Source: Streptosporangium sp. NBC_01495 | GTDB lineage: Bacteria > Actinomycetota > Actinomycetes > Streptosporangiales > Streptosporangiaceae | Assembly: GCF_036250735.1 (NCBI RefSeq) | Contig: NZ_CP109430.1 | Span: 3,968,001-4,032,000 of the forward strand | Length of the DNA stretch: 64,000 bases | Direction: 5' to 3' | Shown here: positions 8,207-32,198 of the stretch, piece by piece | Layout of the letters: the number at the start of each line of letters is the position of its first letter | Position numbering within the stretch: position 1 is the stretch's first letter | Notes under the pieces: generated by a model | Databases searched by the model: none | What the model was told of the DNA's origin: nothing | What the model saw: the letters and a program-made list of their open reading frames with translations, nothing else | Made by a program: the position numbers and the translations under genes

Positions 8207-8249
8207 TTGACATCGGGATTTCCTGGGGTCACGCTGTTGCGTATAGCGC
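8207..8249 (+). promoter_or_regulatory. Promoter and shared GTTGCG operator before the Rieske ferredoxin
   Basis: A perfect -35 hexamer TTGACA at 8207-8212 is followed after about 17 bp by a weak -10 (around 8230-8236), then GTTGCGTATAGCGC at 8236-8249. The 14-mer matches sites before betA (21149), betB (24005) and the dimethylglycine oxidase gene (32163). Its position at the transcription start would suit repression. A further half site, GTTGCGATGAT, lies at 8280-8290 across the start codon. Confidence 0.55.
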
Positions 8250-8285
8250 TGCCTGTTCCGCCCTCCGAAACTGGGGTTTGTTGCG

Positions 8286-8633
8286 ATGATCCCTGCCTGT
8301 CCCCTCGCGGCCCTTCCGCCGGGCGAGGCCCACCGGCTCGACGCCGACCCGCCCATCGCCGTCTTCCACACCGAGGACGGCGAGATCTACGCCGTGGACG
8401 ACACCTGCACCCACCAGGACGCCTCCCTCTCGGACGGGTGGCTGGAGGGCTGTGAGATCGAGTGCCCGCTGCACTCGTCGAGTTTCGACCTGCGGACGGG
8501 ACGGCCGAGCTCTCCTCCCGCCAAACTGCCGCTGCGCACCCACCGGGTGGTGGTCGAGGACGGCACCGTCTACGTCATCCCCTCCGAGGAGCCCCCGAAC
8601 CTGCCGCCCGGCGTCCGCGCGAGCACCGCGTAG
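8286..8633 (+). CDS. Rieske-type [2Fe-2S] ferredoxin
   Basis: A 115-residue soluble electron carrier. The cluster ligands are clear: CTHQDASL (Cys-x-His) near residue 43 and CPLHSSSFDLRTG (Cys-x2-His) near residue 61, in the arrangement of the ferredoxins that serve ring-hydroxylating and N-demethylating oxygenases. It ends 23 bp before the Rieske oxygenase gene and is almost surely co-transcribed with it, so it probably delivers electrons to that enzyme. No ferredoxin reductase is encoded in the window; the electron source must be elsewhere. The start ATG 8286 has no good ribosome site, but it retains the complete fold. Confidence 0.88.
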   Translation: MIPACPLAALPPGEAHRLDADPPIAVFHTEDGEIYAVDDTCTHQDASLSDGWLEGCEIECPLHSSSFDLRTGRPSSPPAKLPLRTHRVVVEDGTVYVIPSEEPPNLPPGVRASTA

Positions 8634-8656
8634 AACCGCGTGAAGAGGAGCAGATC

Positions 8657-9787
8657 GTGACCGCGAGAAGCCTGCCCCCCAGCGTGATCGCCACCCTGCC
8701 CGGCGGCTACTACACCGACGAGAACATCTTCGCCTTGGAGCAGGCCCGCGTCTTCGAGACGATGTGGTTCTGCGTCGCCCGCGCGTCCGACCTCGGCAAG
8801 CCCGGGGCCTTCAGGACCGTACAGGTGGGCCGCGAGAGCGTCCTCGTCACCCGGGCCAGGGACGACTCGATCCGCGCCTTCCTCAACGTGTGCCGCCACC
8901 GGGGCGCCCGGATACGCACCGAGGAGTCCGGCGAGGTCAAGCGGTCCTTCCAGTGCCCGTACCACGCGTGGACCTACGACCTCGACGGCAAACTGATCGC
9001 CGCCCCGAACCTCACCAGGATGCCCGACATCGACCGGGTGGAGTACGGGCTGATCAATGTGCACGTGCGCGAGTGGCTCGGGTACGTATGGGTGTGCCTG
9101 TCCGACGAGCCGCCCTCGTTCGAGGCGGACGTGATCGCCGAGGCGACGCACAGGCTGGGCGACGAGAGGTCCATCGAGAACTACGACATCGCCAATCTCC
9201 GGGTGGGCCGCAGGATCGTCTACGACGTGAAGGCGAACTGGAAGCTCATCGTCGAGAACTTCATGGAGTGCTACCACTGCGCCACCATCCACCCCGAGCT
9301 CACCGAGGTGCTGCCGGAGTTCGCCGACGGGTACGCGGCGCAGTCCTTCGTCGGGCACGGCGCGGAGTTCGGCGAGGAGATCCAGGGGTTCACCGTCGAC
9401 GGCTCCGAGGGAGTGGACCGCATCCCAGGGGTGGGCGAGGACCAGGACCGCCGCTACTACGCGATCACCATCAAGCCGCAGGTCTTCGTCAACCTCGTGC
9501 CCGACCACGTGATCCTGCACCGGATGTTCCCGCTGGCGGCCGACCGGACGATCGTGGAGTGCGACTGGCTCTTCCTCGGCGACGTCGTGGACTCGGGCAG
9601 GGACCTCGGCCCGTCCGTCGAGCTCTTCCACCGTGTCAATGTGCAGGACTTCGAGGCCTGCGAACGCTGCCAGCCCGCGATGAACTCCCGCGCGTACGCC
9701 CAGGGTGGGGTGCTGGTGCCCAGCGAGCACCACATCGGGGCCTTCCACGACTGGGTGCTCGGCAGACTGGAGGCCGGTCCCGCCTGA
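8657..9787 (+). CDS. gbcA: Glycine betaine monooxygenase-like Rieske oxygenase, alpha subunit
   Basis: A 376-residue Rieske non-haem iron oxygenase. The Rieske ligands are NVCRHRGARI (near residue 77) and CPYHAWTYDLDG (near residue 98). The mononuclear iron site reads NFMECYHCATIHPEL with a downstream Asp in NVQDFEACE. The acceptor-side wording (CPYHAWTYDLDGKLIAAPN) matches GbcA-type N-demethylases, which oxidise glycine betaine to dimethylglycine plus formaldehyde. Linked genes for choline, betaine aldehyde, dimethylglycine and sarcosine oxidation, plus a shared promoter motif, favour glycine betaine as substrate; stachydrine or carnitine are the alternatives. GTG 8657 has an AGAGGAG site at 8644-8650. 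In pseudomonads the partner is the reductase GbcB; here it is a Rieske ferredoxin. Confidence 0.8.
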   Translation: MTARSLPPSVIATLPGGYYTDENIFALEQARVFETMWFCVARASDLGKPGAFRTVQVGRESVLVTRARDDSIRAFLNVCRHRGARIRTEESGEVKRSFQCPYHAWTYDLDGKLIAAPNLTRMPDIDRVEYGLINVHVREWLGYVWVCLSDEPPSFEADVIAEATHRLGDERSIENYDIANLRVGRRIVYDVKANWKLIVENFMECYHCATIHPELTEVLPEFADGYAAQSFVGHGAEFGEEIQGFTVDGSEGVDRIPGVGEDQDRRYYAITIKPQVFVNLVPDHVILHRMFPLAADRTIVECDWLFLGDVVDSGRDLGPSVELFHRVNVQDFEACERCQPAMNSRAYAQGGVLVPSEHHIGAFHDWVLGRLEAGPA

Positions 9788-9873
9788 CGCCGACAGGAAC
9801 GCCCGCAGGCCCTCAGTCCATGGTCCCCGGCCGCCTGCACCTCGCGCCCCTTGGCAGCCCTCCCGCGACGGTG

Positions 9874-9911
9874 CCGACATGGTCCGGCGTTTTCCCGCCG
9901 GACCATGTCGG
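9874..9911 (+). terminator. Terminator hairpin after gbcA
   Basis: A perfect 15-bp stem (9874-9888 with 9897-9911) closes an 8-base loop containing TTTT. An outer CCCTCCC (9858-9864) pairs with GGGAGGG (9914-9920). It lies 87 bp after the gbcA stop. There is no run of T after the stem, as is common for actinobacterial terminators. Confidence 0.75.
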
Positions 9912-9997
9912 CAGGGAGGGCTACCCGGGAGCAGATCCAGAAGGCGGGGCCGGCGGTCCGCCCAGAAGATCTGCATCGGTCAGGTGTGCTTGAGTGG

Positions 9998-10995: not shown

Positions 10996-12072
10996 GTGCC
11001 CGTGGCCCTATCATCGCTGATCAGCCCGATCGAGAGCGGCAACACAACGGGATCGGTGCCCGATCGGGTGACCCGCGAAGGGTTGCTGGCCCGCTTCCGC
11101 CGGATTTCCGACCACCGCTCCACCCGAAACGTCCGGCATCCGCTGGCCTCGATCCTGGCACTGGCCGCGTGCGGGGTGGCCGTGGTCGGCGGAGACTCGA
11201 TCATCGCGGTCTGGCACTGGGCCTTCGACTCCTGCCCGCAGGAAGTACTGGCCGAACTGAAGGTGTGGCGCGATCCGTTCACCGGACTGCATGTGCCGCC
11301 CAGCGAGCGGACCTTCCGCCCTGACGGCCGCCGTCCCCAACTGCTGTCGCTGTTCTGTCACACCCGCCACACGACGCTCGCCCAGCGGGCCATCGACACC
11401 AAGACCAGCGAGGTGCCCGAACTCAAACCACTGATAGCCGAAGTGGAGCCGGCAGGCACGGTCCTGACCGCCGACGCGCTGCATACCGTCCGCGAGACCG
11501 CCCGACACCTAGCCGAGGACCTTGACGCGTACTATGTCCTGATTTTGAAGCACAATCAGCCCGCGCTCCTGGTCACGACGATGGCCGCACTGGCTGATGG
11601 GACCGACGCCGAGCATGAACGGGCCGGTACCGGGCACACCGAGATCGACCGGGGTCACGGCCGCAGCGAACGCCGCACCATTCGTACCGCCCCCGCAGAC
11701 GGCATCGACTTCCCCTGCGTGGTCCAGGTCATGCGGATCGTGCGGCACGTCGCCGATCTGCACGGCTCGGGCAGTAGCAAAGAGGTGGTCTACGCCATCA
11801 CGAACCTGCCCGTCCACCTGGCCGGACCCGCCCATCTGGGCACCTACGTCCGCGGGCACTGGGGAGTGGAAACCCGTGCGCATTACGTGCGAGACGTCAC
11901 TTTCGGCGAAGATGCCGGCCGGATCCGCACCGGTGCGCCACCCCAGGTGATGGCGACCTGCAGAAATCTCGCCACCGGCGCATTCCGCCACGTCGGACAC
12001 GTCAATATGGCCTACGCCCGGCGACACTACCGAAACGACGCTCGCCGCCTGCTCACCCTGTTCGACCTATGA
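10996..12072 (+). CDS. ISAs1-family transposase with an internal deletion
   Basis: A 358-residue relative of ISAs1-type transposases, usually near 380-440 residues. The N-terminal DDE_Tnp_1-associated part (HPLASILALAACGVAVVGG) and the C-terminal signature HWGVETRAHYVRDVTFGEDA are good. Catalytic Asp 2 (LTADALHT) and the Glu (GVET) are present. Between PSERTFR and PDGRRPQLL, around base 11310, some 45-60 residues that normally carry the xVDGK(T/A) motif with the first catalytic Asp are absent, with the frame preserved. The product is therefore probably inactive. GTG 10996 has GGGAGG at 10985-10990. Low similarity to neighbours and atypical surroundings mark it as acquired DNA. Confidence 0.85.
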   Translation: MPVALSSLISPIESGNTTGSVPDRVTREGLLARFRRISDHRSTRNVRHPLASILALAACGVAVVGGDSIIAVWHWAFDSCPQEVLAELKVWRDPFTGLHVPPSERTFRPDGRRPQLLSLFCHTRHTTLAQRAIDTKTSEVPELKPLIAEVEPAGTVLTADALHTVRETARHLAEDLDAYYVLILKHNQPALLVTTMAALADGTDAEHERAGTGHTEIDRGHGRSERRTIRTAPADGIDFPCVVQVMRIVRHVADLHGSGSSKEVVYAITNLPVHLAGPAHLGTYVRGHWGVETRAHYVRDVTFGEDAGRIRTGAPPQVMATCRNLATGAFRHVGHVNMAYARRHYRNDARRLLTLFDL

Positions 12073-13066
12073 ACTCAAATCACCCACGAGCGAGTACATC
12101 TTCAACATGCCGGGGCCGTGACCCACTGACCAGCAATTTCGTCAGGGCGGAACGGGACGCTGCCCCTTTCTCTCGTACTTGGGCTGGCCCCCAGGAAACC
12201 CCAGAGTTCCCGCGAACCCAAGGGTCGAGTCCAGACTGTTGGGGTGGTCTGGGAGGTTGTGCACCCTTGGGTTCGCGGGAACCCCAGGCCGTCTACGGTC
12301 AGCCGTTCCCGGAGCGGCACCGGGCGGCGCCCAGGACCCGGCGACGCGAGGCCCTCCGGCCCAGCGAGCAGTTGAGGCGCCTGAGCTGGTGTACGGAGCC
12401 AACCCCCGCGTGAGCAGGCGTCCTCTCCAGGGCGGCGCCCAGCACCGGACCGAGTCATCCTCGACTGGGGCCGGCATACGACTCCTCGGCTTCATCACCA
12501 CTACAAAAACCTCAACGAAGAGGAAGAAGCTTCACCGATCCCGAGATCCCTTCAACCGCAGGAGCGGCGTGCTCTGTACGGAGAACGCCCAGGTCCTGGA
12601 GCTATGGCGACGACGGAGGGCTCAGGGAACTGTGGGGTTATTCCTTAAAACCACTGCCGCGCCGCCACTTCGGCCCGTATCCCCTGATGGAGGCGTGGAA
12701 TGGTCGACCGAGGAGTAGGCAAGGATGTACGGCCTCATTTCACGGCGCCACGCCCACTACCTGGGGAAACTCGTACACCACCTCCGTGGACACAACCCCG
12801 GCCACCGGGACCGGCACCTCAACCGGGAACCATGGAGCCTCGGGACCGGATACAGCCGGGCCCGCGACGGCGGGGCGTCGGCCCGGGCCCGGGGCTGCCG
12901 GCACCGGAACACGATCACCCGGAGTCACCTCGCGGCCGATGGCGCCGACCAACACTGACCGACACCGCCCGGCCGGCACCGCCCGGCACCGCGATTCGAA
13001 CGGAGGGCCTATAGTGTGCGCGGCCCGCCTTCTGAGAGGGTCGGGGTGAGCGGAAGGAGGCGCGAG
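12073..13066. other. About 1 kb without an assignable gene
   Basis: The stretch contains the perfect inverted repeat at 12206-12282. Short open stretches exist, for example 12602-12720 with the translation fragment WSYGDDGGLRELWGYSLKP, and ATG 12725 with a modest ribosome site, but none has a recognisable family, continuous gene-like length or consistent codon bias. It may hold a decayed gene or the degraded flank of the upstream insertion sequence. Directly before 13067, GGAAGGAGG belongs to the molybdoenzyme gene. Confidence 0.5.
12206..12282. repeat. 20-bp perfect inverted repeat (large hairpin)
   Basis: Arm 12206-12225 reads GTTCCCGCGAACCCAAGGGT, and 12263-12282 is its exact reverse complement. 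Inner bases add a CCAGAC/GTCTGG stem. The 37-base interior and 20-bp stem suggest a strong cruciform or RNA hairpin, located 134 bp after the transposase stop. It could be a terminator, a REP-like element or a mobile-element end. Confidence 0.8.
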
Positions 13067-15373
13067 ATGGCCAGGAAGGCTCCGCGCGACGACGTCAACG
13101 AGGACGGCCTCGAGGTCGGCCCGCCCAAGGAGTGGGCCGCCGGCATCCCGGGGGTGACCCGGTCGCTGCTGGCCGCGAACGCCCAGATGGGCGTCGGCCG
13201 CACCCTGCGCACCCTGGCCGTGGTCAACCAGAAGGAGGGCTTCGACTGCCCCGGTTGCGCCTGGCCCGAGGGCGGGCACCGCAGCCCGGCCGAGTTCTGT
13301 GAGAACGGCGCCAAGGCGGTGGCAGAGGAGGCCACCGTCCGCAGGGTCACCCGCGACTTCTTCGCCGGGCACACCGTGGACGACCTGGCACGGCACACCG
13401 ACTACTGGCTCGGTCAGCAGGGACGCCTCACCGAGCCGATGCACCGGCCAGAGGGGTCCGACCACTACGTGCCGGTGACCTGGGACGACGCGTTCGCCAT
13501 CATCGCCCGTGAGCTGCGCGCCCTCGACAGCCCCGACGAGGCGCTGTTCTACACCTCCGGCCGCACCTCCAACGAGGCCGCGTTCGCGTACCAGCTCCTG
13601 GTGCGCAGGTTCGGCACCAACAACCTGCCCGACTGCTCCAACATGTGCCACGAGTCCAGCGGCTCGGCGCTCAACGAGACCCTCGGCATCGGCAAGGGCA
13701 CCGTCTCGCTGGAGGACCTGCAGCGGGCCGACCTCATCTTCGTGGTCGGCCAGAACCCCGGCACCAACCACCCGCGCATGCTGTCGGCGCTGGAGCGGGC
13801 CAAGCGCGGCGGCGCCAGGATCATCGCGGTCAACCCGCTGCCCGAGGCCGGGCTGCTCCGCTTCAAGAACCCGCAGCGGGCCTCCGGGCTGGTGGGGAAG
13901 GGCACCACGCTGGCCGACCGGTTCCTGCAGATCCGCCTCAACGGTGACCTCGCGCTCTTCCAGGCCATGTCGCTGCTCCTGCTCGAGGCCGAGGACGCCG
14001 CCCCCGGCACCGTGATCGACCGCGACTTCGTCGAGACCCACACCCACGGTTTCGACAAGTGGGCCGAGGACCTGCGCTCCCTGGACTGGGCGGAGGTCGA
14101 GGAGGCGACCGGGCTGGACCGCCCGGCCGTCGAGGACGCCGTACGGGAGGTGCTGGGCGCGAAGTCGGTCATCGTGTGCTGGGCGATGGGGCTCACCCAG
14201 CACAAGAACTCCGTCGCCACCATCAGGGAGGTCGTCAACTTCCTGCTGCTGCGCGGCAACGTGGGTCGCCCGGGGGCGGGGGTGTGCCCGGTCCGTGGCC
14301 ACTCCAACGTCCAGGGCGACCGCACCATGGGCATCTACGAGAGACCGCCGACCTGGTTCCTCGACGCGCTGCGCGCCGAGTTCGGTTTCGAGCCGCCCCG
14401 CCACCACGGCTTCGACACCGTGGAGGCGATCCGTGCGCTGCGGTCGGAGCGGGCGAAGGTCTTCGTCGCGATGGGCGGCAACTTCGTGGCCGCGACCCCC
14501 GACACGGCGGTGACCGAGAAGGCGATGCGCCGGGCCAGGCTGACGGTGCAGGTGTCGACCAAGCTCAACCGCTCCCACGCGGTGTGCGGCCGGGAGGCGC
14601 TCATCCTTCCCACGCTGGGACGCACCGAACGCGACGTCGCGCGCGGTGGCCGCGCGGGCCGCTTCGTCACGGTCGAGGACTCCATGGGCCTGGTCCACGC
14701 CTCGCGGGGCAACCTGCCCCCCGCCTCCGACGACCTGCTCTCCGAGGTGGACATCGTCTGCCGCCTGGCGACAGAGCTGTTCGGCGCCGACCCGCACGTG
14801 CCCTGGGAGCAGTTCTCGGCTGACTACGACGTGATCCGCCACCGCATCTCCCGGGTGATCCCCGGGTTCGAGGACTTCAACGTGCGGGTCCGTCTCCCGG
14901 ACGGCTTCGCGCTGCCCAACGCGCCCCGCGACGAGCGCCGCTTCCCGACCGCGACGGGAAAGGCCAACTTCACCGTCAACCACCTGGAGGTGCTGCGGGT
15001 CCCGCCGGGGCGGCTGCTGCTGCAGACGGTCCGCAGCCATGACCAGTACAACACCACGATCTACGGCATGGACGACCGCTACCGGGGCGTGCGCAACGGC
15101 CGCCGGGTGGTTTTCGTGCACGCCGACGACCTGGCCGAGCGAGGTCTGGCCGACGGCGACATGGTGGATCTGGTCAGCGAGTGGCCCGACGGTGAGCGCC
15201 GGGCGGAGTCCTTCCGCGCCATCGCCTACCCGACCGCCCGCGGCTGCTGCGCCGCCTACTTCCCCGAGACGAACGTGCTCGTGCCACTCGACTCGGTCGC
15301 GGAGACCTCCAACACCCCCACCTCCAAGAGCGTCGTGGTCAGACTCGTCAAGCGTGCCGCGGACGGTGCCTGA
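13067..15373 (+). CDS. FdhF/YdeP-family molybdopterin oxidoreductase
   Basis: A 768-residue molybdoenzyme of the FdhF/YdeP type. An N-terminal GFDCPGCAWPEG segment replaces the four-Cys iron-sulfur motif of true formate dehydrogenases. The Mo ligand Cys is probably that in CSNMCHESSG near residue 200. Cofactor-binding blocks VVGQNPGTNHPRM, GNVGRPGAGVCPVRGHSNVQGDR (as GRPGAGVCPVRGHSN) and FPTATGKANF follow. ATG 13067 has GGAAGGAGG at 13052-13060. Substrates of this family are mostly unproven; formate oxidation is possible, and formaldehyde from betaine demethylation would feed formate, but that link is inference. E. coli YdeP is linked to acid resistance. The gene stands alone. Confidence 0.85.
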   Translation: MARKAPRDDVNEDGLEVGPPKEWAAGIPGVTRSLLAANAQMGVGRTLRTLAVVNQKEGFDCPGCAWPEGGHRSPAEFCENGAKAVAEEATVRRVTRDFFAGHTVDDLARHTDYWLGQQGRLTEPMHRPEGSDHYVPVTWDDAFAIIARELRALDSPDEALFYTSGRTSNEAAFAYQLLVRRFGTNNLPDCSNMCHESSGSALNETLGIGKGTVSLEDLQRADLIFVVGQNPGTNHPRMLSALERAKRGGARIIAVNPLPEAGLLRFKNPQRASGLVGKGTTLADRFLQIRLNGDLALFQAMSLLLLEAEDAAPGTVIDRDFVETHTHGFDKWAEDLRSLDWAEVEEATGLDRPAVEDAVREVLGAKSVIVCWAMGLTQHKNSVATIREVVNFLLLRGNVGRPGAGVCPVRGHSNVQGDRTMGIYERPPTWFLDALRAEFGFEPPRHHGFDTVEAIRALRSERAKVFVAMGGNFVAATPDTAVTEKAMRRARLTVQVSTKLNRSHAVCGREALILPTLGRTERDVARGGRAGRFVTVEDSMGLVHASRGNLPPASDDLLSEVDIVCRLATELFGADPHVPWEQFSADYDVIRHRISRVIPGFEDFNVRVRLPDGFALPNAPRDERRFPTATGKANFTVNHLEVLRVPPGRLLLQTVRSHDQYNTTIYGMDDRYRGVRNGRRVVFVHADDLAERGLADGDMVDLVSEWPDGERRAESFRAIAYPTARGCCAAYFPETNVLVPLDSVAETSNTPTSKSVVVRLVKRAADGA

Positions 15374-15382
15374 GGCGCGACC

Positions 15383-21096: not shown

Positions 21097-21148
21097 AGCG
21101 GGACTGTAGGCGCTCAGAGCAACGAACGCCATCGAGGCAACAATCATC

Positions 21149-21181
21149 GTTGCGAATGGTGCAGCGCATTGCGCTATTCGC
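21149..21181. promoter_or_regulatory. IclR-type operator between iclR and betA
   Basis: GTTGCGAATGGTGC (21149-21162) matches the motif before gbcA, betB and dmgO. It also forms the left half of a longer imperfect palindrome, GCGAATGGTGCA (21152-21163) with TGCGCTATTCGC (21170-21181), pairing at 10 of 12 positions. The site lies in the 130-bp divergent region, 46 bp before the betA start. Confidence 0.65.
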
Positions 21182-21226
21182 TACAATTTCGGGCATTACC
21201 TCCTGCTTGAACGAGGCGAGGCAGAC

Positions 21227-23019: not shown

Positions 23020-23142
23020 GTGAGTGAGGCCACGGTTCGGCCGAACGAGACGACGGTGCCGTTGATGCCGTGCGCGTCGGTGGAGGAGACCCTGGAGTTC
23101 TACGAGGCGCCGGGGCGTCTCGGAGGCCGAGCTTGTGCGTAA
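23020..23142 (+). pseudogene. Truncated VOC/glyoxalase-like gene
   Basis: GTG 23020, with GGAAGG at 23005-23010, opens a 40-codon frame reading TTVPLMPCASVEETLEFYEA, the typical N-terminus of a vicinal-oxygen-chelate protein of the bleomycin-resistance type. The match ends after the first beta-alpha unit, and a TAA follows at 23140. The remaining 90 or so residues are absent, so this is a 3' deletion relic next to the second IclR gene. Confidence 0.6.
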
Positions 23143-23160
23143 CCCGCTTAAAGTTGTGTC

Positions 23161-23964: not shown

Positions 23965-23998
23965 ACAAAAAGGGTCGATTCTGTTCCTCGTTAAGCAT

Positions 23999-24021
23999 TC
24001 CGATGCGTCATACGCAACGGA
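23999..24021. promoter_or_regulatory. Palindromic operator before betB
   Basis: The 23-bp segment has perfect half sites TGCGT and ACGCA around CAT, extended by TCCGA and ACGGA (one mismatch). On the minus strand its core is GTTGCGTATGACGC, the same 14-mer family as at 8236, 21149 and 32163. It ends 29 bp before the GTG start of betB. Confidence 0.7.
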
Positions 24022-24050
24022 TCATGCGGTAGCCGGAAGGACGGCCGTTC

Positions 24051-25508
24051 GTGTCAGATCTCTACCTCGGTGGCACCTGGAGGGATCCCGTCGCGGGCGG
24101 CCACCGGGAGATCCGCTCACCGGCCGACGGCGGGCTCGTGGCGACCGTGTCGGAGGCCACCCGGGCCGACACCGAGATCGCGATCGCCGAGGCCCGCGCG
24201 GCGTTCGACGAGGGCAGCTGGGCGTCCACCCCCGAACGCGAGCGCGGCGCGCTGCTGCTGAGGGTCGCCGACCTGCTCGAACGAGACGTCAAGAACGTGG
24301 CCAGGGCCGAGTCGCTCGACACCGGCAAGCGGCTCGTCGAGAGCGAGTACGACGTCGCCGACGTGGTGGCCTGCCTGCGCTACTTCGGCGGCATCGCCGG
24401 GACCGACGCGGGCCGCGTGATCGACACCGGCCGCGACGACGCGATCAGCCGCGTCGTCCACGAACCGGTCGGGGTGTGCGGCCTCATCACCCCCTGGAAC
24501 TACCCGCTGCTGCAGGCCTCGTGGAAGGTCGCCCCCGCGCTGGTCGCGGGGAACACCTTCGTCCTCAAGCCCAGCGAGCTCACCCCGTCCACCGCGATCA
24601 TGTTCATGCGCCTGCTGGAGGAGGCCGGGCTGCCCCCGGGCGTCGGCAACCTCGTCCTCGGAGCGGGCGCCGAGGTCGGCGCCCCGCTGGCCGAGCACCC
24701 CGACGTGGACATGGTCTCGTTCACCGGCGGCCTCGCGACCGGCCGTACGATCATGGCGTCGGCGGCGGCCACGGTGAAGAGGGTCGCGCTGGAGCTCGGC
24801 GGCAAGAACCCCAACATCGTCTTCGCCGACGCCGACGTCGAGACCGCCCTCGACTTCGCCCTCACCGCGGTGTTCCTCCACTCCGGGCAGGTCTGCTCGG
24901 CCGGTGCCCGCCTGCTGGTCGAGGACTCCCTGCACGACACCTTCGTCGACGAGCTCGTACGCCGTGCCGCCCGCATCCGCCTCGGCGGCCCCTTCGATCC
25001 CGAGGCCGAGACCGGTCCGCTCATCTCCGCCGCGCACCTGGCCAAGGTCGAGGCGTATGTCGCGTCCGGCGTCGCGGAGGGCGCGGTGCTGCGCTGCGGC
25101 GGGGAGAGACTCCCCGGCGAGGGGCATTTCTACCCGCCGACCATCCTCGACGAATGTCACCGGGGCATGCGGGTGGTCCGCGAGGAGTCCTTCGGGCCCG
25201 TCCTCACCGTCGAGCGCTTCGGCGACGAGGACGAGGCGGTCCGCCTCGGCAACGACACCGATTACGGCCTGGCCGGGGCGGTGTGGACGCAGGACGCGGG
25301 GAAAGCCCAGCAGGTCGCCGGGCGGCTCCGGCACGGCACCGTCTGGATCAACGACTACCACCCCTACGTCCCGCAGGCGGAGTGGGGCGGTTTCAAGCAG
25401 TCGGGGATCGGCCGCGAGCTGGGCCCGGCGGGTCTGGCCGAATATCGGGAGACCAAACACGTGTGGCAGAACGTCCGCCCCCGCCCGCAGCGGTGGTTCC
25501 GCAGCTGA
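24051..25508 (+). CDS. betB: Betaine aldehyde dehydrogenase
   Basis: A 485-residue NAD(P)-dependent aldehyde dehydrogenase producing glycine betaine. The conserved stretches are LITPWNYPLLQASWKVAPAL, FTGGLATGR, the catalytic Glu in ELGGKNPNIVF and the nucleophile Cys in SGQVCSAGARLL, followed by EESFGPVLTVERF. GTG 24051 has GGAAGGA at 24035-24041. It is probably first in an operon with the betaine importer (45-bp gap to the ATPase gene) and follows an IclR gene. Confidence 0.92.
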   Translation: MSDLYLGGTWRDPVAGGHREIRSPADGGLVATVSEATRADTEIAIAEARAAFDEGSWASTPERERGALLLRVADLLERDVKNVARAESLDTGKRLVESEYDVADVVACLRYFGGIAGTDAGRVIDTGRDDAISRVVHEPVGVCGLITPWNYPLLQASWKVAPALVAGNTFVLKPSELTPSTAIMFMRLLEEAGLPPGVGNLVLGAGAEVGAPLAEHPDVDMVSFTGGLATGRTIMASAAATVKRVALELGGKNPNIVFADADVETALDFALTAVFLHSGQVCSAGARLLVEDSLHDTFVDELVRRAARIRLGGPFDPEAETGPLISAAHLAKVEAYVASGVAEGAVLRCGGERLPGEGHFYPPTILDECHRGMRVVREESFGPVLTVERFGDEDEAVRLGNDTDYGLAGAVWTQDAGKAQQVAGRLRHGTVWINDYHPYVPQAEWGGFKQSGIGRELGPAGLAEYRETKHVWQNVRPRPQRWFRS

Positions 25509-25553
25509 CGGACCAACCCCCGTCACCAGACGACCCGTGAGGTGGTCACCACC

Positions 25554-26678
25554 ATGACGTCACCGACCCAGCAGGTGCGGCCGGGAGCCGCCGCGCGGAG
25601 CGAGGACCGGGCCGTCCTCGACGTGCGAGGTCTCTGGAAGGTCTTCGGCCCGCGTCCGGACCGGATCGTCGGGACCCCGCTCGCGGAGCTCTCGCGGAGT
25701 GAGCTGAGGGCGAGGACGGGCTGCGTGACCGCCGTCCGCGACGTCTCCTTCAGCGTGCGGCCCCAGGAGGTCTTCGTCGTCATGGGCCTGTCCGGCTCCG
25801 GCAAGTCCACCCTCGTACGCTGCCTGACGCGGCTCGTCGAGCCGACGGCCGGAGAGGTGCTGTTCGACGGCGAGGACATCCGCAAGGCGGGAGACAGGCA
25901 GCTGCGCGAGCTGCGCCGCCACCGCTTCGCCATGGTCTTCCAGAACTTCGGGCTGCTGCCGCACCGGCGGGTCCTGGACAACGTGGCCTACGGGCTGGAG
26001 ATCCGCGGCACGGGGAAGGCGGCCCGCTACGAGCGGGCCAGGGAGATGGTCGAGCTCGTCGGCCTGTCGGGCTCCGAGGACTCCTACCCCGACCAGCTGT
26101 CGGGCGGCATGCAGCAGCGCGTCGGGCTGGCCAGGGCCCTCGCGGTGGACCCGGACGTGCTCTTCTTCGACGAGCCGTTCTCCGCGCTCGACCCGCTGAT
26201 CAGGCGGGACATGCAGAACGAGGTCATCCGCCTGCACCGCGAGGTCGGCAAGACGATGATCTTCATCACGCACGACCTGAGCGAGGCGCTCAAGCTCGGC
26301 GACCGCATCCTCATCATGCGCGACGGCGAGCTCGTCCAGATGGGCACGCCGGACGAGGTCGTCGGGGCGCCCGTGGACGACTACGTGCGCGAGTTCGTCA
26401 GGGACGTGCCCCGCTCGAACGTGCTCACCACCCGCTGGATCATGCGCCCGCCCCGGCCGGACGAACCGCTGGACGGTCCGGAGGTCGGGCCGGACGTCGT
26501 CGTACGCGACGTCGTGCACACGGTTCTGCGCGCGACGCGCCCGGTCAAGGTCGTCGAGGGCGGTGAGCTGCTGGGGGTCGTCACCGCCGAGGAGGTCCTC
26601 GGGGTGCTCGCCGAGCCGGCTCCCGAGGGAACCCCCGGCAAGCCCGCCGGGCCCGTCAGGTCCGGGGAGCAGGGGTGA
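25554..26678 (+). CDS. opuAA: Glycine betaine/proline ABC importer ATPase
   Basis: A 374-residue ProV/OpuAA-type ATPase. Walker A is GLSGSGKST (about residue 80), the Q-loop [10 protein letters not shown], the signature [15 protein letters not shown] and Walker [14 protein letters not shown], followed by the switch ITHD. After residue 290 there is a short C-terminal extension related to the CBS region of OpuAA but without two complete CBS domains, so osmotic gating by CBS pairs is doubtful. ATG 25554 has GTGAGGTGG upstream. Its stop overlaps the permease ATG by one base. Confidence 0.92.
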
Positions 26679-28672
26679 TGGCCACCCAGGCCACCCCGGC
26701 CGGTGGCCTGCGGCGCCTGCCCGCCTGGCCCCGCCGCTACCTGCTGGCCGCCGTCGTCGCGGCATGGGTGCTGATCTGGGTGTTCGTCCAGGGCCGCGAC
26801 ACCTTCCAGCTCGGCGGCGCGGAACTGACCCCGCTGCACGTACGGATCAACGAGGGCAGCGAGGTCATCGACAACAGCAGGAACGACAACCCGTTCTTCC
26901 TGTACTTCATCAACTACATCCGCCTCTTCCTCGACGAGTCCGTCACGTTCGTCCAGGCGCTGATCAGCCGGCCGTCCTTCGGGCGCCCGCTGCCGGTCGT
27001 CGGCTGGCTGGGCGTGGTCGCCTTCGCCACGGCGATCGCGCTGCTGTGGGGCAACCTGCGGGTCGCCCTGCTGACCGCGATCGGCTTCGCCTCCTTCGGC
27101 CTGCTGGGCCTGTGGGAGGAGAGCATGGACACCCTCGCCCTCACCCTGGCCGCCGTCGCGCTCTCGCTGCTGATCGGCATCCCGCTCGGCGTCTGGGCCG
27201 GGGTGAACGACCGGTTCAACCGCCTGGTCACCCCGCTGCTCGACTTCATGCAGACGATGCCGACGTTCGTCTACCTCGCGCCGCTCACCCTGTTCTTCCT
27301 CATCGGCCCCGCGAGCGCCACCGTGGCGACCGTCATCTACGCCGTCCCGCCCGCGATCCGCATCACCGCGCACGGCATCCGCGAGGTGCGGCCCGCCACC
27401 CTGGAGGCCAGCGCCTCCCTCGGCTCGACCGCCTGGCAGTCACTGAGGAAGGTACGGCTCCCGCTGGCCAAGCGGACCATCATCGTCGGCGTCAACCAGA
27501 CCATCATGGCCGCGCTGTGCATGGTCACCATCGCCGCGCTGATCGACGCCCCCGGCCTGGGCAAGACCGTCGTCAAGGCGCTGGAGACCCTCGACGTCGG
27601 CAGTGCCTTCAACGCGGGCCTGGCCATCGTCGTCATGGCCATCGTGCTCGACCGGGTCACCTCCGCCGCGGGGCGCCGCGTCGAGATCCGGCACCGGGCC
27701 GGACGCTCGCGCGGACCCGGCCGCCGCCGCGCGGAGATCGGCGCGGTCCTGGCGGTCACCGGCGTGCTGGCCTACCTCTCCCACGTCTACGTGTGGGCCG
27801 CGGAGTTCCCGAGCGAGGCGAACATAGGACGGTACGTCCGTCAGGGGGTCGACGCGGCCACCCTGTGGGCGCAGGACAACCTCGCCGTCTACACCGGCGC
27901 GTTCAGGAACGCCGTCTCCTACGGCCTGCTCAACCCGTTCGAGGCGCTGCTCACCGGCTCGCCGTGGTGGCTGGTCGGCGCCGTGCTGATCGCGTTCGCC
28001 GCGATCCTGTCGAACGTCAGGGTCGTGCTCGTCACCGCGGTCTGCGTCGCCCTGCTCGTCGGGCTCGGCCTGTGGCAGGACAGCATGGTGACGCTCGCCT
28101 CGACGCTCGTGGCCACCGTCCTGGTGATGGTCCTCGGAGTGGTGGTCGGCGTCTGGATGGGGCGCAGCGACCGCGTCGACCAAGTGGTGCGGCCCGTCCT
28201 CGACGCCGGGCAGACCATGCCGCCGTTCGTCTACCTGGTGCCGATCCTCGGCCTGTTCGGCGCCACCCGGATCACCGCGATCATCGCCGCGGTCGTCTAC
28301 GCCGCCCCGGTGGCGGTCAAACTCACCGCGGACGGCATCCGCGGCGTGGCGCCGAGCGCGGTGGAGGCCGCCACGGCCGCGGGTTCCAGCACCTGGCAGC
28401 TCATCACCAAGGTGCAGCTGCCGATGGCGCGCAGCGCGCTCACCCTCGCCGCGAGCCAGGGGCTCATCTACGTGCTCGCCATGGTCGTCGTCGGCGGCCT
28501 GGTCGGCGCGGGCGCGCTCGGCTACGACGTGGTGGCGGGCTTCTCCCAGCTGCAGCTGCGGGGCAAGGGACTCGCCGCGGGCGTGGCGATCGTCGTACTC
28601 GGGATCATGCTGGAGCGCATCACCAGGACGGCGGCACGGCGGGCCGACGCCGAGGCGCACGGCGCCCGTTGA
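26678..28672 (+). CDS. Betaine ABC permease with two fused ProW-type domains
   Basis: A 664-residue membrane protein made of two homologous permease units, about residues 110-340 and 440-664. Each has a betaine-type permease loop: LDFMQTMPTFVYLAP with ATLEASASLGSTAWQ, then LDAGQTMPPFVYLVP with SAVEAATAAGSSTWQ, followed by the coupling segments KVRLPLAKR and KVQLPMARS. Usual ProW or OpuAB proteins have one such unit and dimerise, so one chain here probably forms the full transmembrane channel. ATG 26678 overlaps the ATPase stop (TGATG); a GTG one codon earlier is possible. Confidence 0.9.
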   Translation: MATQATPAGGLRRLPAWPRRYLLAAVVAAWVLIWVFVQGRDTFQLGGAELTPLHVRINEGSEVIDNSRNDNPFFLYFINYIRLFLDESVTFVQALISRPSFGRPLPVVGWLGVVAFATAIALLWGNLRVALLTAIGFASFGLLGLWEESMDTLALTLAAVALSLLIGIPLGVWAGVNDRFNRLVTPLLDFMQTMPTFVYLAPLTLFFLIGPASATVATVIYAVPPAIRITAHGIREVRPATLEASASLGSTAWQSLRKVRLPLAKRTIIVGVNQTIMAALCMVTIAALIDAPGLGKTVVKALETLDVGSAFNAGLAIVVMAIVLDRVTSAAGRRVEIRHRAGRSRGPGRRRAEIGAVLAVTGVLAYLSHVYVWAAEFPSEANIGRYVRQGVDAATLWAQDNLAVYTGAFRNAVSYGLLNPFEALLTGSPWWLVGAVLIAFAAILSNVRVVLVTAVCVALLVGLGLWQDSMVTLASTLVATVLVMVLGVVVGVWMGRSDRVDQVVRPVLDAGQTMPPFVYLVPILGLFGATRITAIIAAVVYAAPVAVKLTADGIRGVAPSAVEAATAAGSSTWQLITKVQLPMARSALTLAASQGLIYVLAMVVVGGLVGAGALGYDVVAGFSQLQLRGKGLAAGVAIVVLGIMLERITRTAARRADAEAHGAR

Positions 28673-28783
28673 GAACTTGAAAGCAGCGAGAAGCAGGGAG
28701 AGACGTACCGAGAAACCGGGCGCGGCCGGACACCCGCCGGGCGGAACCGAACACGGCACACGACACCAATACAGGAGGACCTG

Positions 28784-29779
28784 GTGACAGTTTCGAGGAT
28801 CGGGCGACCGCGGGCGATGGCGCTCCTGGTCGCGACCGGCCTCCTCGTCTCCGCGTGCGGCGGGGCGAAGGTCGGCGAGAGCGACGGAGGGGCCGCCCCG
28901 GCAGCCTCGAGCGCGGACGGCAAGAAGGAGTGCGGCACGGTCAACATCGCCATCAACCCGTGGGTCGGGTACGAGGCGACCGCGGCGGTCATCGCCCACG
29001 TGGCCGAGAAGGACCTCGGCTGCTCGGTCACCAAGAAGGACCTCAAGGAGGAGATCGCCTGGCAGGGCTTCGCCACCGGCGAGGTCGACGCGATCGTGGA
29101 GAACTGGGCCCACGACGACCTGAAGAAGAAGTACATCGAGGACCAGAAGGTCGCCGTCTCGGCCGGATCGACGGGCAACAAGGGCGTCATCGGCTGGTAC
29201 GTGCCGCCGTGGATGGCCGAGAAGTACCCCGACATCACCGACTGGAAGAACCTCAACAAGTACGCCGACCTGTTCAAGACCTCCGAGTCCGGGGGCAAGG
29301 GGCAGCTGCTCGACGGCGACCCCTCCTTCGTGACCAACGACGCGGCCCTGGTGAAGAACCTGAAGCTGGACTACAAGGTCGTCTACGCGGGCAGCGAGGC
29401 GGCGCTCATCACCGGGTTCAGGCAGGCCGAGAAGCAGAAGACCCCGATGCTCGGCTACTTCTACGAGCCGCAGTGGTTCCTGTCGGAGGTCAAGCTCGTC
29501 AAGGTCAAGCTGCCCGAGTACACCGAGGGCTGCGACGCCGACGCGGAGAAGGTGGCCTGCGACTACCCGCTCTACGACCTCGACAAGATCGTGAGCAAGA
29601 AGTTCGCCGACTCCGGCAGCCCGGCGTACGACCTGGTCAAGAACTTCACCTGGACGAACGAGGACCAGAACCTCGTGGCCAAGTACATCTCCGAGGACAA
29701 GATGACGGCCGAGGAGGCCGCCGAGAAGTGGGTCGGCGACAACCCCGACAAGGTGAAAGCCTGGCTCCCCACCTCCTGA
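28784..29779 (+). CDS. Betaine-binding lipoprotein (OpuAC-type)
   Basis: A 331-residue substrate-binding lipoprotein. The signal peptide ends at the lipobox LVSAC (about residue 24). The mature domain begins CGTVNIAINPWVGYEATAAV and keeps the aromatic-cage style residues typical of betaine binders, with WVGYEA, ENWAHDDL, YVPPWMAE and YFYEPQWFL placed across two lobes. GTG 28784 has AGGAGG at 28772-28777. The gap to the permease gene is 111 bp. It is the last gene before the tRNA fragment at 29784, so the operon ends directly against the mobile-element scar. Confidence 0.92.
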   Translation: MTVSRIGRPRAMALLVATGLLVSACGGAKVGESDGGAAPAASSADGKKECGTVNIAINPWVGYEATAAVIAHVAEKDLGCSVTKKDLKEEIAWQGFATGEVDAIVENWAHDDLKKKYIEDQKVAVSAGSTGNKGVIGWYVPPWMAEKYPDITDWKNLNKYADLFKTSESGGKGQLLDGDPSFVTNDAALVKNLKLDYKVVYAGSEAALITGFRQAEKQKTPMLGYFYEPQWFLSEVKLVKVKLPEYTEGCDADAEKVACDYPLYDLDKIVSKKFADSGSPAYDLVKNFTWTNEDQNLVAKYISEDKMTAEEAAEKWVGDNPDKVKAWLPTS

Positions 29780-29783
29780 GCGC

Positions 29784-29834: not shown

Positions 29835-29840
29835 GCCAAA

Positions 29841-29872: not shown

Positions 29873-29878
29873 GAGTGA

Positions 29879-30016: not shown

Positions 30017-30082
30017 TGATCTGCTTCCTTTGGGAGGCGTGGCGACATGGGTCCCTCCAGATCCCACGCCGCCACGCCCGTC

Positions 30083-30911: not shown

Positions 30912-30958
30912 GGAGTAAGCGTCATTCCATTTGAGTGACGAACCCACCGCGTTCCAGA

Positions 30959-31005
30959 GACGTCCAGGACGTTTCAAAGTTAGAGTCGAAAACGTCCCTG
31001 ACGTC
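30959..31005. promoter_or_regulatory. 16-bp inverted repeat between the trio and its divergent regulator
   Basis: GACGTCCAGGACGTTT (30959-30974) and AAACGTCCCTGACGTC (30990-31005) pair at 14 of 16 positions around a 15-base spacer. Each arm also contains two GACGT-type half sites. It lies 21 bp before the GTG start of the HTH regulator, a typical place for autoregulation and for control of the divergent trio. Confidence 0.65.
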
Positions 31006-31025
31006 CTCACTCCACGAGGTGCACC

Positions 31026-31808
31026 GTGGCCAACGTCCCCCTACGTCGCGCCATGCTCGAGGCGAAGCTGAGCAACCAGAACCTGGCGGACCGCTGCGAG
31101 GTGGATGTTAAGACGGTGGAACGCTGGTTACAGGATGAGGCACGAGTTCCGCACCTCCGGCACCAGTTGGCCGCCGCCGAGGCATTAGGAGTTGATACGT
31201 CCGTGTTGTGGCCAGAAGCTATCCGTAACACCGTGAAGACCGGTCCGGATCGAGAGGTTCTGACCGTTTACCCCTATCGGTCGGCTTGCCCCAAGTCGAT
31301 CTGGCGCAACCTGATCACCTCGGCCCGCAACGAGATCGTCTTCGCCGGGTACACCAACTACTTCCTGTGGCTGGAACACCCCAACCTCGCCAAGGTCCTC
31401 AAGCGCAAGGCCGAGCAAGGGTGCAAGATCCGATTCCTGATCGGCGACCCGGACAGCGAGGTCACCCGCCGCAGGGAGGAGGTGGAGAACGTCCCGTTGA
31501 CGGTCTCCACCCGCATCCGGATCACCCTCTCGGAGATCGAGCAGGTTCGGAACGTACCCGGCATCGAAGCGCGCTTCGGAGACGAGCACATCGCGATGAG
31601 CGTCTTCCGCTTCGACTCCGAGATGCTCGTGACGCCGCACCTGGCCAAGCTCGTCGGCCACGACTCGCCGATGATGCACCTGCGCCGCTACCAGGACGAC
31701 GGACTGTTCGACCGGTTCGGCTATCACGCCTCCGAGCTGTGGAGCAACGGCCGGGACGTCTGGGCGGAGGAGCCGCGAAAGCCTGCGGAGAGCGCCAGTT
31801 CTGGGTGA
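31026..31808 (+). CDS. HTH regulator with C-terminal PLD-like domain
   Basis: A 260-residue protein. Residues 1-55 form an XRE-type HTH (LEAKLSNQNLADRCEVDVKT, VERWLQDEARVP). Residues 75-250 form a domain resembling phospholipase-D-like folds (YPYRSACPKSIWRNLITSA, LKRKAEQGCKIRFLIGDPDS), annotated in actinobacteria as a DUF5919-type sensor region. The HKD catalytic motifs are not seen, so it is likely a ligand- or nucleotide-sensing module. GTG 31026 has GAGGT at 31016-31020. It is divergent from the coupled trio with a strong inverted repeat between, so it is the probable regulator of that operon. Confidence 0.8.
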   Translation: MANVPLRRAMLEAKLSNQNLADRCEVDVKTVERWLQDEARVPHLRHQLAAAEALGVDTSVLWPEAIRNTVKTGPDREVLTVYPYRSACPKSIWRNLITSARNEIVFAGYTNYFLWLEHPNLAKVLKRKAEQGCKIRFLIGDPDSEVTRRREEVENVPLTVSTRIRITLSEIEQVRNVPGIEARFGDEHIAMSVFRFDSEMLVTPHLAKLVGHDSPMMHLRRYQDDGLFDRFGYHASELWSNGRDVWAEEPRKPAESASSG

Positions 31809-31866
31809 CCAACTGGGTGACAACGACCCCGGACGGGGGCGGACAACGGTGGACGGGCGTGGACCG

Positions 31867-31965
31867 TACGCCCAGGTCACGGGCCACGTCGGTGACCTTG
31901 CGGCCCGCCTCAACGAGATCTGGCACCTTACGCCGGAACTCCGACGGGTAGCCACGCCGTCCCAT
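31867..31965 (-). pseudogene. IS3-family transposase OrfA N-terminal relic
   Basis: Read from ATG 31965 the minus strand gives MGRRGYPSEFRRKV, then LVEAGRKVTDVARDLGV, the start and first HTH helices of IS3-type OrfA proteins. Similarity stops at Val 33, after which the frame runs into unrelated sequence. The remainder of OrfA and all of OrfB are absent here. Confidence 0.8.
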
Positions 31966-32162
31966 GCCACTCTCCTCTCAACGAGTGGCACAAGAATCCA
32001 AGAACCCGCCTCTACAAGACCAGGGGCACATCAGAGCCTCCATCAGACCTGGAGCGATTCAGAACGCGAGGGGACGGAGCGGGCCCGGCTGTTCCCGTTC
32101 GCCGTTTCCCGAGGACGACCGTCGGCCCGTTCTTGACAGCGTTATCGACGGGAGGACAATCT

Positions 32163-32198
32163 GTTGCGGGAAGCGCACTTCGTTTCGGAATGCGCAAC
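32163..32198. promoter_or_regulatory. Shared GTTGCG operators before dimethylglycine oxidase
   Basis: GTTGCGGGAAGCGC (32163-32176) matches the gbcA site at 11 of 14 positions. A second, inverted copy, GTTGCGCATTCC on the minus strand, occupies 32187-32198. Both lie within 50 bp of the ATG at 32212. The sequence left of it (31966-32160) is derived from the mobile-element remnant and shows nothing else. Confidence 0.6.

What the first reader, a model, noticed from the sequence alone, without database searches (positions are those of the whole stretch)
8236..32198. One palindromic motif shared by four betaine-pathway promoters
GTTGCGTATAGCGC (8236), GTTGCGAATGGTGC (21149), GTTGCGTATGACGC (24018-24005, minus) and GTTGCGGGAAGCGC (32163), plus an inverted GTTGCGCATTCC at 32187, lie directly before gbcA, betA, betB and dmgO. 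Genes for separate steps of choline-to-glycine breakdown are therefore likely controlled by one regulator although spread over 24 kb. Two paralogous IclR genes flank the betA and betB sites and are the natural candidates.
Basis: partly seen in the sequence, partly recalled or inferred. Interest (0 to 1): 0.75.

Follow-up and report, generated by a model that had tools for sequence, protein, structure and literature searches.

The report
One repressor switch for choline breakdown
Four scattered promoters of a soil bacterium's choline-to-glycine pathway carry the same double DNA docking site, which most likely lets one sensor protein of the IclR family switch the whole pathway on and off together.

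Summary
The single 14-mer is not rare (5 in the window, 2.8 expected). What is rare is the full element: two 17-bp palindromes, GTTnCG-N5-CGnAAC, centres 19 bp apart, at 8236-8271, 21149-21184, 23983-24018 and 32163-32198. A model built from other species' sites ranks these four first in the 11.1-Mb genome (E 3e-6 to 3e-4); the next distinct hit is E 0.29, inside a coding frame. This is the published tandem operator layout of IclR regulators (PMC8222616). In 80 related loci the element precedes 63 of 63 gbc ferredoxin, 26 of 32 dmgO, 44 of 59 betA and 34 of 50 betB genes, and none of 42 proX or 20 soxB. At gbc, betB and dmgO it follows a -35 box at a near-fixed distance (125 of 126 sites), so it should cover the transcription start: a repressor site. 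Of 14 full-length IclR proteins here, only the two flanking ones share the recognition helix. IclR1 is the main candidate: seven relatives without IclR2 keep sites. Binding and effector are untested; I found no published IclR regulator of this pathway.

The parts
8236..8271 (+). tandem operator of the gbc (Rieske ferredoxin-gbcA) promoter: palindromes 8236-8252 and 8255-8271
   Evidence: model R1 26.6 bits, E 5.1e-5 in the whole genome; a pair of 15 or more before 63 of 63 Fdx genes in related loci
21149..21184 (+). tandem operator between the divergent genes iclR1 and betA: palindromes 21149-21165 and 21168-21184
   Evidence: R1 24.1 bits, E 3.3e-4 genome-wide; before 44 of 59 betA genes in related loci
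23983..24018 (+). tandem operator of betB-proVWX: palindromes 23983-23999 (weak, 6 of 10 positions) and 24002-24018
   Evidence: R1 25.5 bits, E 1.1e-4 genome-wide; before 34 of 50 betB genes in related loci
32163..32198 (+). tandem operator of dmgO-sox: palindromes 32163-32179 and 32182-32198
   Evidence: R1 30.7 bits, E 2.7e-6 genome-wide; before 26 of 32 dmgO genes in related loci
23136..23171 (+). weak candidate operator over the start of iclR2 (possible self-control)
   Evidence: R1 13 bits, E 1.15 genome-wide, E 0.0066 in the window; sequence
8207..8235 (+). promoter-like TTGACA-17-CACGCT ending directly at the gbc operator (poor -10)
   Evidence: TTGAC in the -40..-25 stretch before the operator in 65 of 65 gbc-proximal sites of relatives; the sigma-70 scan found none over its threshold
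23953..23982 (+). promoter-like TTGACT-18-GATTCT ending directly at the betB operator
   Evidence: TTGAC in 34 of 35 proximal betB/proV sites of relatives
32133..32160 (+). promoter-like TTGACA-16-GACAAT directly before the dmgO operator
   Evidence: 10 of 12 matches; TTGAC in 26 of 26 dmgO sites of relatives
20296..21147 (-). iclR1, IclR-family regulator, main candidate (true start probably somewhat inside this frame)
   Evidence: PF01614 4.7e-45, PF09339 1.5e-15; many relatives align only from residue 9-15 on
23161..23964 (+). iclR2, paralogous IclR-family regulator
   Evidence: PF01614 1.1e-44; 51% identical to IclR1; separate clade
8286..8633 (+). Rieske ferredoxin, taken as partner of the betaine monooxygenase by neighbourhood
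   Evidence: PF00355 2.7e-17; its NCBIfam match over cut-off is a phenylpropionate dioxygenase ferredoxin model, NF007422
8657..9787 (+). gbcA-like Rieske oxygenase, probable glycine betaine monooxygenase
   Evidence: NF058607 best hit, 225 bits, far below its cut-off 670; PF00848 2.3e-48; start chosen by eye
21227..22867 (+). betA choline dehydrogenase
   Evidence: TIGR01810 832 bits, over cut-off
24051..25508 (+). betB betaine aldehyde dehydrogenase
   Evidence: TIGR01804 589 bits, best hit but below cut-off 668.6
25542..29779 (+). proV-proW-proX type choline/betaine ABC transporter (three genes)
   Evidence: TIGR01186, TIGR03416 over cut-off; OpuAC PF04069
32212..34638 (+). dmgO dimethylglycine oxidase-like (DAO, FAO_M, GCV_T, GCV_T_C), named from its domains; start at ATG 32212 after GGAGGTGG
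   Evidence: PF01266, PF16350, PF01571, PF08669; no NCBIfam model over cut-off for the longer frame; start by eye
34804..36316 (+). soxB and soxD of heterotetrameric sarcosine oxidase
   Evidence: TIGR01373, TIGR01374 over cut-off
13016..15373 (+). FdhF/YdeP-type molybdopterin oxidoreductase, part of the cluster in many relatives; no operator of its own
   Evidence: TIGR01701 941.6 bits; next to gbcA or iclR1 in relatives; 0 of 19 in related loci have a pair of 15 or more before them
10996..12072 (+). ISAs1-type transposase, one of the insertions that spread the cluster
   Evidence: NF033564 122 bits over cut-off; PF01609

Best explanation
The four promoters share one operator, a tandem pair of 17-bp palindromes 19 bp apart. 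It most likely binds a tetramer (two dimers on one face of the DNA) of the IclR-family protein IclR1, and probably of its paralogue IclR2 too. At gbc, betB and dmgO the operator begins right after the -10 region, so the bound protein should block the transcription start: repression in the absence of inducer. A betaine-pathway metabolite, most likely glycine betaine or choline, would release it and switch on uptake and all demethylation steps at once. The betA/iclR1 site lies in a divergent promoter, so IclR1 would also control itself. Shown by computation: the element, its genome-wide specificity, its conservation, its position after -35 boxes, and its tie to IclR1. Inferred: binding, repression, tetramer, identity of the inducer.
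For: R1, built from 75 sites of other species, ranks exactly the four promoters first in the 11.1-Mb genome (E 2.7e-6, 5.1e-5, 1.1e-4, 3.3e-4); after reverse-strand matches of two of them the next hit is E 0.29, inside a GntR coding frame. In 80 related loci (1.54 Mb) there are 212 pairs scoring 16 or more at 19 bp and 0-27 at every other spacing from 9 to 44. A pair of 15 or more lies at -260..+20 of 63/63 Fdx, 26/32 DmgO, 44/59 BetA, 34/50 BetB starts, but 0/42 ProX, 0/42 ProW, 0/20 SoxB, 0/17 SoxD, 0/19 FdhF, and 203 of 4000 random stretches of the same loci, true sites included. TTGAC lies at -40..-25 from the operator in 125 of 126 proximal gbc, betB/proV and dmgO sites, against 3 of 126 at -60..-41; the -35 box was not used to choose the sites. 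The form matches IclR GTT-11-AAC tandem operators (PMC8222616). Of 41 genomes all 19 with an IclR1-like protein (E<=1e-60) have an R1 hit (E<=0.05), against 3 of 22 without (Fisher 8e-9). G004 has betA but no iclR1 hit, and its betA site is decayed. Only IclR1 and IclR2 of 14 full-length IclR proteins carry the VH[K/R]STAFRL helix and the Asn-Trp pocket motif.
Against: No binding or expression data. The relatives' sites were picked with the consensus seen in this window, so their likeness is partly by construction. Genomes are related, so the Fisher values overstate independence; about 2 chance hits are expected at E<=0.05 over 41 genomes, and some hits (G017, G022, G026, G030) are weak. Misses are real: 16 of 50 betB, 15 of 59 betA and 6 of 32 dmgO starts lack a pair of 15 or more. 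The betA site has no TTGAC box before it (1 of 47), and the limits of the 'proximal' classes were set after I had seen the positions. BhcR, the nearest named NCBIfam model (below its cut-off), activates its main operon (PMC11323563). The whole-genome scan scored 150 of 1716 first-look candidates, so weak sites may be missed.
Confidence: 0.85

Rival explanations
1. Divided labour: IclR2 controls betB-proVWX and itself, IclR1 controls betA, gbc and dmgO, each with its own effector, like the two BetI proteins of Ruegeria pomeroyi.
For: IclR2 sits directly before betB and a weak site overlaps its own start. In Ruegeria two BetIs share out the choline genes (PMC12442346 abstract). IclR2 is an old separate clade.
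Against: The recognition helices are nearly identical. In related loci 33 of 48 betB genes without an IclR2 gene in the locus have a pair of 15 or more before them, and G016 has one without any IclR2 in its genome search.
Confidence: 0.15
2. The regulator is an activator: bound IclR1 recruits RNA polymerase when inducer is present.
For: Some IclR proteins activate; BhcR is required for its operon (PMC11323563). The betA site has no standard -35 box before it, and in relatives with betaine-synthesis genes the site lies far upstream.
Against: At gbc, betB and dmgO the site starts just after the -10 position, where a bound tetramer should block initiation.
Confidence: 0.12
3. Another factor, such as the TetR gene at 16633-17247 or a BetI-type repressor, binds these sites.
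For: A TetR gene lies in the cluster region, and BetI, a TetR protein, is the usual bet repressor (PMC12442346 passages).
Against: In the 16 relatives' regions the TetR gene was not found at 1e-15, while the sites are conserved; the site form is that of IclR, and the sites follow IclR1 across genomes.
Confidence: 0.03
4. The likeness comes only from chance or from copied promoter DNA, with no bound protein.
For: The single motif is at chance frequency, and with free spacing the count of pairs of 15 or more in the window is not extreme.
Against: Fixed 19-bp spacing in 80 loci, genome-wide specificity, conservation with diverged flanks and different central bases, absence before genes inside the operons, and a decayed site where the regulator is missing.
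Confidence: 0.02

Closest known systems
IclR-family tandem operators, subgroup GTT-11-AAC (Suvorova and Gelfand 2021, PMC8222616)
   Same: 17-bp palindrome with GTT..C...G..AAC edges; tandem sites with centres 18-22 nt apart, read as a tetramer
   Different: The inner bases here prefer GTTGCG...CGCAAC where the published consensus is GTTYCRYW3RYGRAAC; betaine and choline are not named in the main text. Its supplementary regulon tables could not be read.
BetI regulons (TetR family) for choline to betaine; two-BetI variant in Ruegeria pomeroyi (PMC12442346, abstract and passages)
   Same: Repressor-type control of betA/betB; two paralogous regulators in one case, with a cluster split by inserted genes
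   Different: Regulator of another family; the sites here also cover betaine demethylation and the dmgO-sox promoter
BhcR of Paracoccus denitrificans (IclR family, glyoxylate; PMC11323563, passages)
   Same: Best NCBIfam model for both IclR1 and IclR2 (197 and 206.5 bits against cut-off 350); regulator divergent from its target gene
   Different: Below the cut-off. BhcR keeps the Asp212 and Gly160 glyoxylate contacts (Table 1 of the paper), while at these places IclR1 has Thr and Ser and IclR2 Ala and Ser (counted by hand). BhcR activates its operon.
GbdR regulator of choline/betaine response in Pseudomonas aeruginosa (start of the abstract of PMC3572970 in the listing; AraC family recalled)
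   Same: One regulator linked to betaine and choline use
   Different: Another protein family (recalled); this window has the IclR type

Membership tests
IclR-family transcription factor (IclR1, IclR2) | N-terminal HTH_IclR plus IclR_C effector domain | tested here: met
   PF09339 and PF01614 over the gathering score in both
IclR-family transcription factor (IclR1, IclR2) | binds DNA as dimer or tetramer and answers a small effector | not testable with these tools
   needs purified protein
GTT-11-AAC tandem IclR operator | 17-bp palindrome with GTT/AAC ends and C and G inside | tested here: met
   consensus GTTGCG-N5-CGCAAC; in this window the best halves fit 10 of 10 (gbc, dmgO), the others depart at 1-4 of 10 positions
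GTT-11-AAC tandem IclR operator | tandem, centres 18-22 nt apart | tested here: met
   19 bp: 212 pairs against 0-27 at other spacings in 80 loci
GTT-11-AAC tandem IclR operator | protein bound in vitro or in vivo | not testable with these tools
   no footprint data
BetI (TetR) regulon | TetR-type repressor encoded in the bet cluster | tested here: not met
   conserved cluster regulators are IclR; a TetR gene at 16633 exists here but was not found in the 16 relatives' regions and matches no BetI model
BhcR equivalog | NF045644 score over the curated cut-off 350 | tested here: not met
   197 and 206.5 bits
Repressor-type promoter layout | operator overlaps the transcription start | tested here: inconclusive
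   position after -35/-10-like boxes fits at gbc, betB, dmgO, not shown at betA; starts not mapped

The most novel reading that the evidence does not exclude
One IclR switch senses a trimethylammonium compound (betaine or choline) and, beyond breakdown, also steers the making of betaine. In four relatives (G020, G021, G022, G024) the same tandem operator lies 263-301 bp upstream of the methyltransferase domain of the glycine-to-betaine synthesis enzyme, an upstream position unlike the blocking position at the breakdown genes, so the same protein could act in opposite senses on making and breaking betaine and on the disposal of the released one-carbon units. The invariant pocket tryptophan in IclR1 and IclR2 would form part of an aromatic cage for the methylated nitrogen.
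Probability: 0.2. Interest if true: 0.68.

Novelty: new member of a known kind. Interest (0 to 1): 0.45.

Why it matters
Choline and betaine are abundant in soil and plant matter. The switches for their use that I know of are BetI (TetR family) and GbdR in Proteobacteria (the latter's family recalled). This gives actinobacteria (Streptosporangiaceae, Streptomyces) a concrete, testable IclR regulon that ties uptake, choline oxidation and the demethylation steps to one operator, with named binding sites, a named regulator and a candidate sensing residue. In relatives it reaches one-carbon disposal genes and even betaine synthesis, which bears on how a cell avoids making and destroying an osmoprotectant at the same time.

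Tried and rejected
Rejected: the single 14-mer as the unit (chance frequency). Rejected: a wider regulon in this genome; the next hit after the four (C1:4051108, E 0.29) lies inside a GntR-type coding frame, and the E 0.71 hit (C1:3823148) inside a response-regulator frame (L147:1152-1820). The E 1.35 hit (C1:5361104) lies where the two frames I scanned had no Pfam family; C1:1883875 (E 1.47) was not looked at further. Rejected: the TetR gene at 16633 as regulator (not in relatives' regions). Rejected: glyoxylate as likely effector, because the Asp contact listed for E. coli IclR is replaced (alignment counted by hand). Led nowhere or against: the sigma-70 scan at gbc found no promoter over its threshold and one short terminator-like hairpin at 8263-8276 overlapping the operator, which I take as chance; GSMT-SDMT in this genome has no hit over the cut-off. 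Not done: structure prediction of IclR1. Not readable: supplements of PMC8222616, so whether this regulon is listed there is unknown.
Full report
What was checked. The five stated sequences are present at the stated places. As single 14-mers they are not unusual in this 70% GC window: 5 matches against 2.8 expected, and 217 against 221 for a similar pattern with two mismatches. Reading the flanks showed a larger element at every promoter: two 17-bp palindromes, GTTnCG-N5-CGnAAC, whose centres are 19 bp apart. They lie at 8236-8271, 21149-21184, 23983-24018 and 32163-32198, and they are the four best 19-bp pairs in the window (18, 16, 15 and 18 of 20 positions). In 300 dinucleotide shuffles no pair scored above 16, and pairs of 16 or more averaged 0.023 per shuffle against 3 observed. 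With spacing left free, 31 of 300 shuffles gave four or more pairs of 15 or more at some spacing, and the window has five at spacing 12, so I did not rest the case on the window.

Where it is. The window lies in an 11.1-Mb genome held in two contigs. The nearest named relatives of iclR1 are in Streptosporangium. Genes: Rieske ferredoxin and a gbcA-like oxygenase; iclR1 divergent from betA; iclR2; betB with a proV-proW-proX type transporter; dmgO; soxB and soxD. NCBIfam cut-offs are met for betA, soxB, soxD and two transporter genes. betB is a best hit below the cut-off, gbcA a best hit far below it (225 of 670 bits), the ferredoxin passes the cut-off of a phenylpropionate dioxygenase ferredoxin model, and dmgO is named from its domains, so these labels lean on the neighbourhood. 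In relatives the same genes sit closer together: in G010 Fdx to DmgO, with betB and the transporter between, span about 12.5 kb. Here an ISAs1-type transposase (10996-12072) and other DNA not seen in the relatives' regions lie between them, which accounts for much of the 24-kb spread.

Whole-genome test. The exact single palindrome occurs 14 times (3 for the reversed control), two of them here. The full tandem pattern with up to 3 mismatches occurs at the gbc and dmgO promoters and nowhere else, reversed control 0. I then built a sequence-only model, R1, from 75 sites of other species. They are 75 of 90 dereplicated sites; I left out 15 by eye as offset duplicates or sites not close to a pathway start. 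In the own genome R1 ranks the four promoters first (E 2.7e-6 dmgO, 5.1e-5 gbc, 1.1e-4 betB, 3.3e-4 betA); reverse-strand matches of the dmgO and betA sites follow; then E 0.29. That hit lies inside the coding frame of a GntR-type regulator. A weak match, E 1.15 genome-wide, overlaps the start of iclR2. Two cautions: the relatives' sites were chosen with the consensus seen here, so some likeness is built in, and the tool scored 150 of 1716 first-look candidates.

Conservation. The scan for IclR1 relatives gave 264 loci, of which the best 80 were kept (Streptosporangiaceae including Nonomuraea, and Streptomyces). In these 80 loci pairs scoring 16 or more number 212 at 19 bp and 0 to 27 at any other spacing from 9 to 44. 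Counting genes with their misses, a pair of 15 or more lies at -260..+20 of the start of 63 of 63 Fdx, 26 of 32 DmgO, 44 of 59 BetA, 44 of 81 IclR1, 34 of 50 BetB, 5 of 44 ProV, 4 of 63 GbcA and 3 of 8 IclR2 genes, but of 0 of 42 ProX, 0 of 42 ProW, 0 of 20 SoxB, 0 of 17 SoxD and 0 of 19 FdhF; random stretches of the same length in the same loci, true sites included, gave 203 of 4000. Many BetB and BetA misses are Microbispora and Planotetraspora loci. Of the 212 strong pairs, 168 lie at -260..+20 from a start of Fdx, GbcA, BetA, IclR1, BetB or DmgO; 44 do not. I looked at the neighbours of 9 of those 44 and named genes at 5: a mycothiol-dependent formaldehyde dehydrogenase (L096), zinc-type dehydrogenases (L083, L110), an MFS transporter beside formyltetrahydrofolate deformylase (L139) and a ferredoxin reductase (L107). 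Several of the rest lie near locus ends where dmgO is expected but cut off (inferred).

Promoter position. A TTGAC -35 box starts 27 to 37 bp before the operator in 26 of 26 dmgO, 34 of 35 proximal betB/proV and 65 of 65 proximal gbc sites; in the stretch just further upstream it occurs in 3 of these 126 (which used all 218 sites; the limits of the 'proximal' classes were set). With a usual 16-18 bp spacer the -10 box ends at the operator, so the start of transcription should fall inside it. This is the layout of a repressor site. The betA site does not follow this rule (1 of 47), nor do the distal betB (0 of 26), distal gbc (2 of 14) and IclR2 (0 of 3) sites.

Which protein. The form is that published for IclR regulators: GTT-11-AAC palindromes, tandem, 18-22 nt apart, read as two dimers on one face (PMC8222616: abstract, passages and first part of the Results read). 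Among 41 genomes, 19 have an IclR1-like protein at E<=1e-60 and all 19 have an R1 hit at E<=0.05; of the 22 without, 3 have a hit (Fisher 8e-9; at E<=0.003, 15 of 19 and 1 of 22). About two chance hits are expected at E<=0.05, some hits are weak (G017, G022, G026, G030), three of the genomes (G008, G009, G010) seem to be records that also gave sites to R1, and cluster genes travel together, so these values overstate the case. Three facts go beyond that: sites in some genomes lie on other contigs than the regulator; G004 has betA but no IclR1 or IclR2 hit, and its betA site is decayed (E 0.0155); G005 has betA, no such regulator and no hit. IclR2 at 85-100% identity occurs in 3 of 16 genomes searched; seven others that keep sites (G002, G003, G008, G009, G011, G012, G016) give only IclR1 at E<=1e-50. 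In the 80 loci 33 of 48 betB genes without IclR2 nearby still have the site. The tree puts IclR2 in its own clade, so the duplication is old. The own genome has 17 IclR_C matches; of the 14 full-length ones only these two have the VH[K/R]STAFRL recognition helix and an Asn-Trp in the pocket strand (one other, L211, has a partly similar helix). The Trp is invariant in 114 of 114 IclR1/IclR2-type sequences, own two and repeated genomes included; the helix is near-invariant in sequences of 65% identity or more and varies a little in the 9 more distant IclR1-like ones.

Effector. Glyoxylate-type contacts are not kept: where E. coli IclR has Asp212 and Gly160 (Table 1 of PMC11323563, passages read), IclR1 has Thr and Ser and IclR2 Ala and Ser (counted by hand). 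The two Ser contacts are kept in most. An invariant Trp near the published pocket positions suggests a methylated amine, since betaine- and choline-binding proteins use aromatic cages (recalled, not tested). I rate betaine first, choline second.

Extension seen in relatives. In G020, G021, G022 and G024, which carry a 57-61% IclR1-like protein, the same tandem site lies 263-301 bp upstream of the methyltransferase domain of the glycine-to-betaine synthesis fusion; 4 of the 6 genomes with this enzyme over its cut-off have it (R1 E 2.3e-5 to 0.0095), while G026 and G027 do not. It is one of a few conserved blocks in otherwise diverged upstream DNA. This genome has no such enzyme over the cut-off. 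One regulator touching both making and breaking of betaine is the most novel reading.

Known or not. I found no paper on an IclR regulator of betaine or choline breakdown in these searches, judged from their listings: (open-licence PMC library only; some searches listed only part of the papers found). The supplementary tables of PMC8222616 could not be read, and that work may list this regulon. I therefore file it as a new member of a known kind: an IclR tandem-operator regulon, with an unusually complete pathway under one site.

Noticed in passing
L182, L184, L188, L192 (G020, G021, G024, G022): The same tandem operator lies upstream of a glycine/sarcosine plus sarcosine/dimethylglycine methyltransferase fusion, i.e. 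betaine synthesis, in 4 of 6 relatives that have it over cut-off.
   Followed up: partly
L171:8558-9790; similar 27-30% DmgO-like genes with a pair before them in L172, L173, L177: In L171 a GcvT-like protein close to DMSP demethylase (338 bits, cut-off 410) with its own tandem operator stands before dmgO, and no gbcA was found in the fetched stretch; it could be another betaine demethylase. The other three were not scanned.
   Followed up: no
L186:7532-9229 (G020), L139:8965-9915, L096:14403-15494: Formate-tetrahydrofolate ligase, formyltetrahydrofolate deformylase and mycothiol-dependent formaldehyde dehydrogenase have the operator nearby in some relatives: the regulon may extend to one-carbon disposal.
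   Followed up: partly
window 13016-15373: An FdhF/YdeP-type molybdopterin oxidoreductase is kept inside the betaine cluster in many relatives without an operator of its own; perhaps it oxidises formate from the released methyl groups.
   Followed up: no
L041/L042 (G004), just upstream of betA: Decayed operator before a betA gene in a genome without an IclR1 or IclR2 hit: a natural case of a site fading when its regulator is gone.
   Followed up: yes
L093, L105, L109 (Streptomyces), L098, L132 (Nonomuraea), L102; about -153 to -203 from betB, and -131 to -133 from Fdx in several Streptomyces: A second, distal tandem site without a TTGAC box before it, suggesting DNA looping, a second promoter or another gene start.
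   Followed up: no
window 42044-51644 minus strand: Two very long neighbouring frames (2075 and 1107 codons) next to the cluster, not examined.
   Followed up: no
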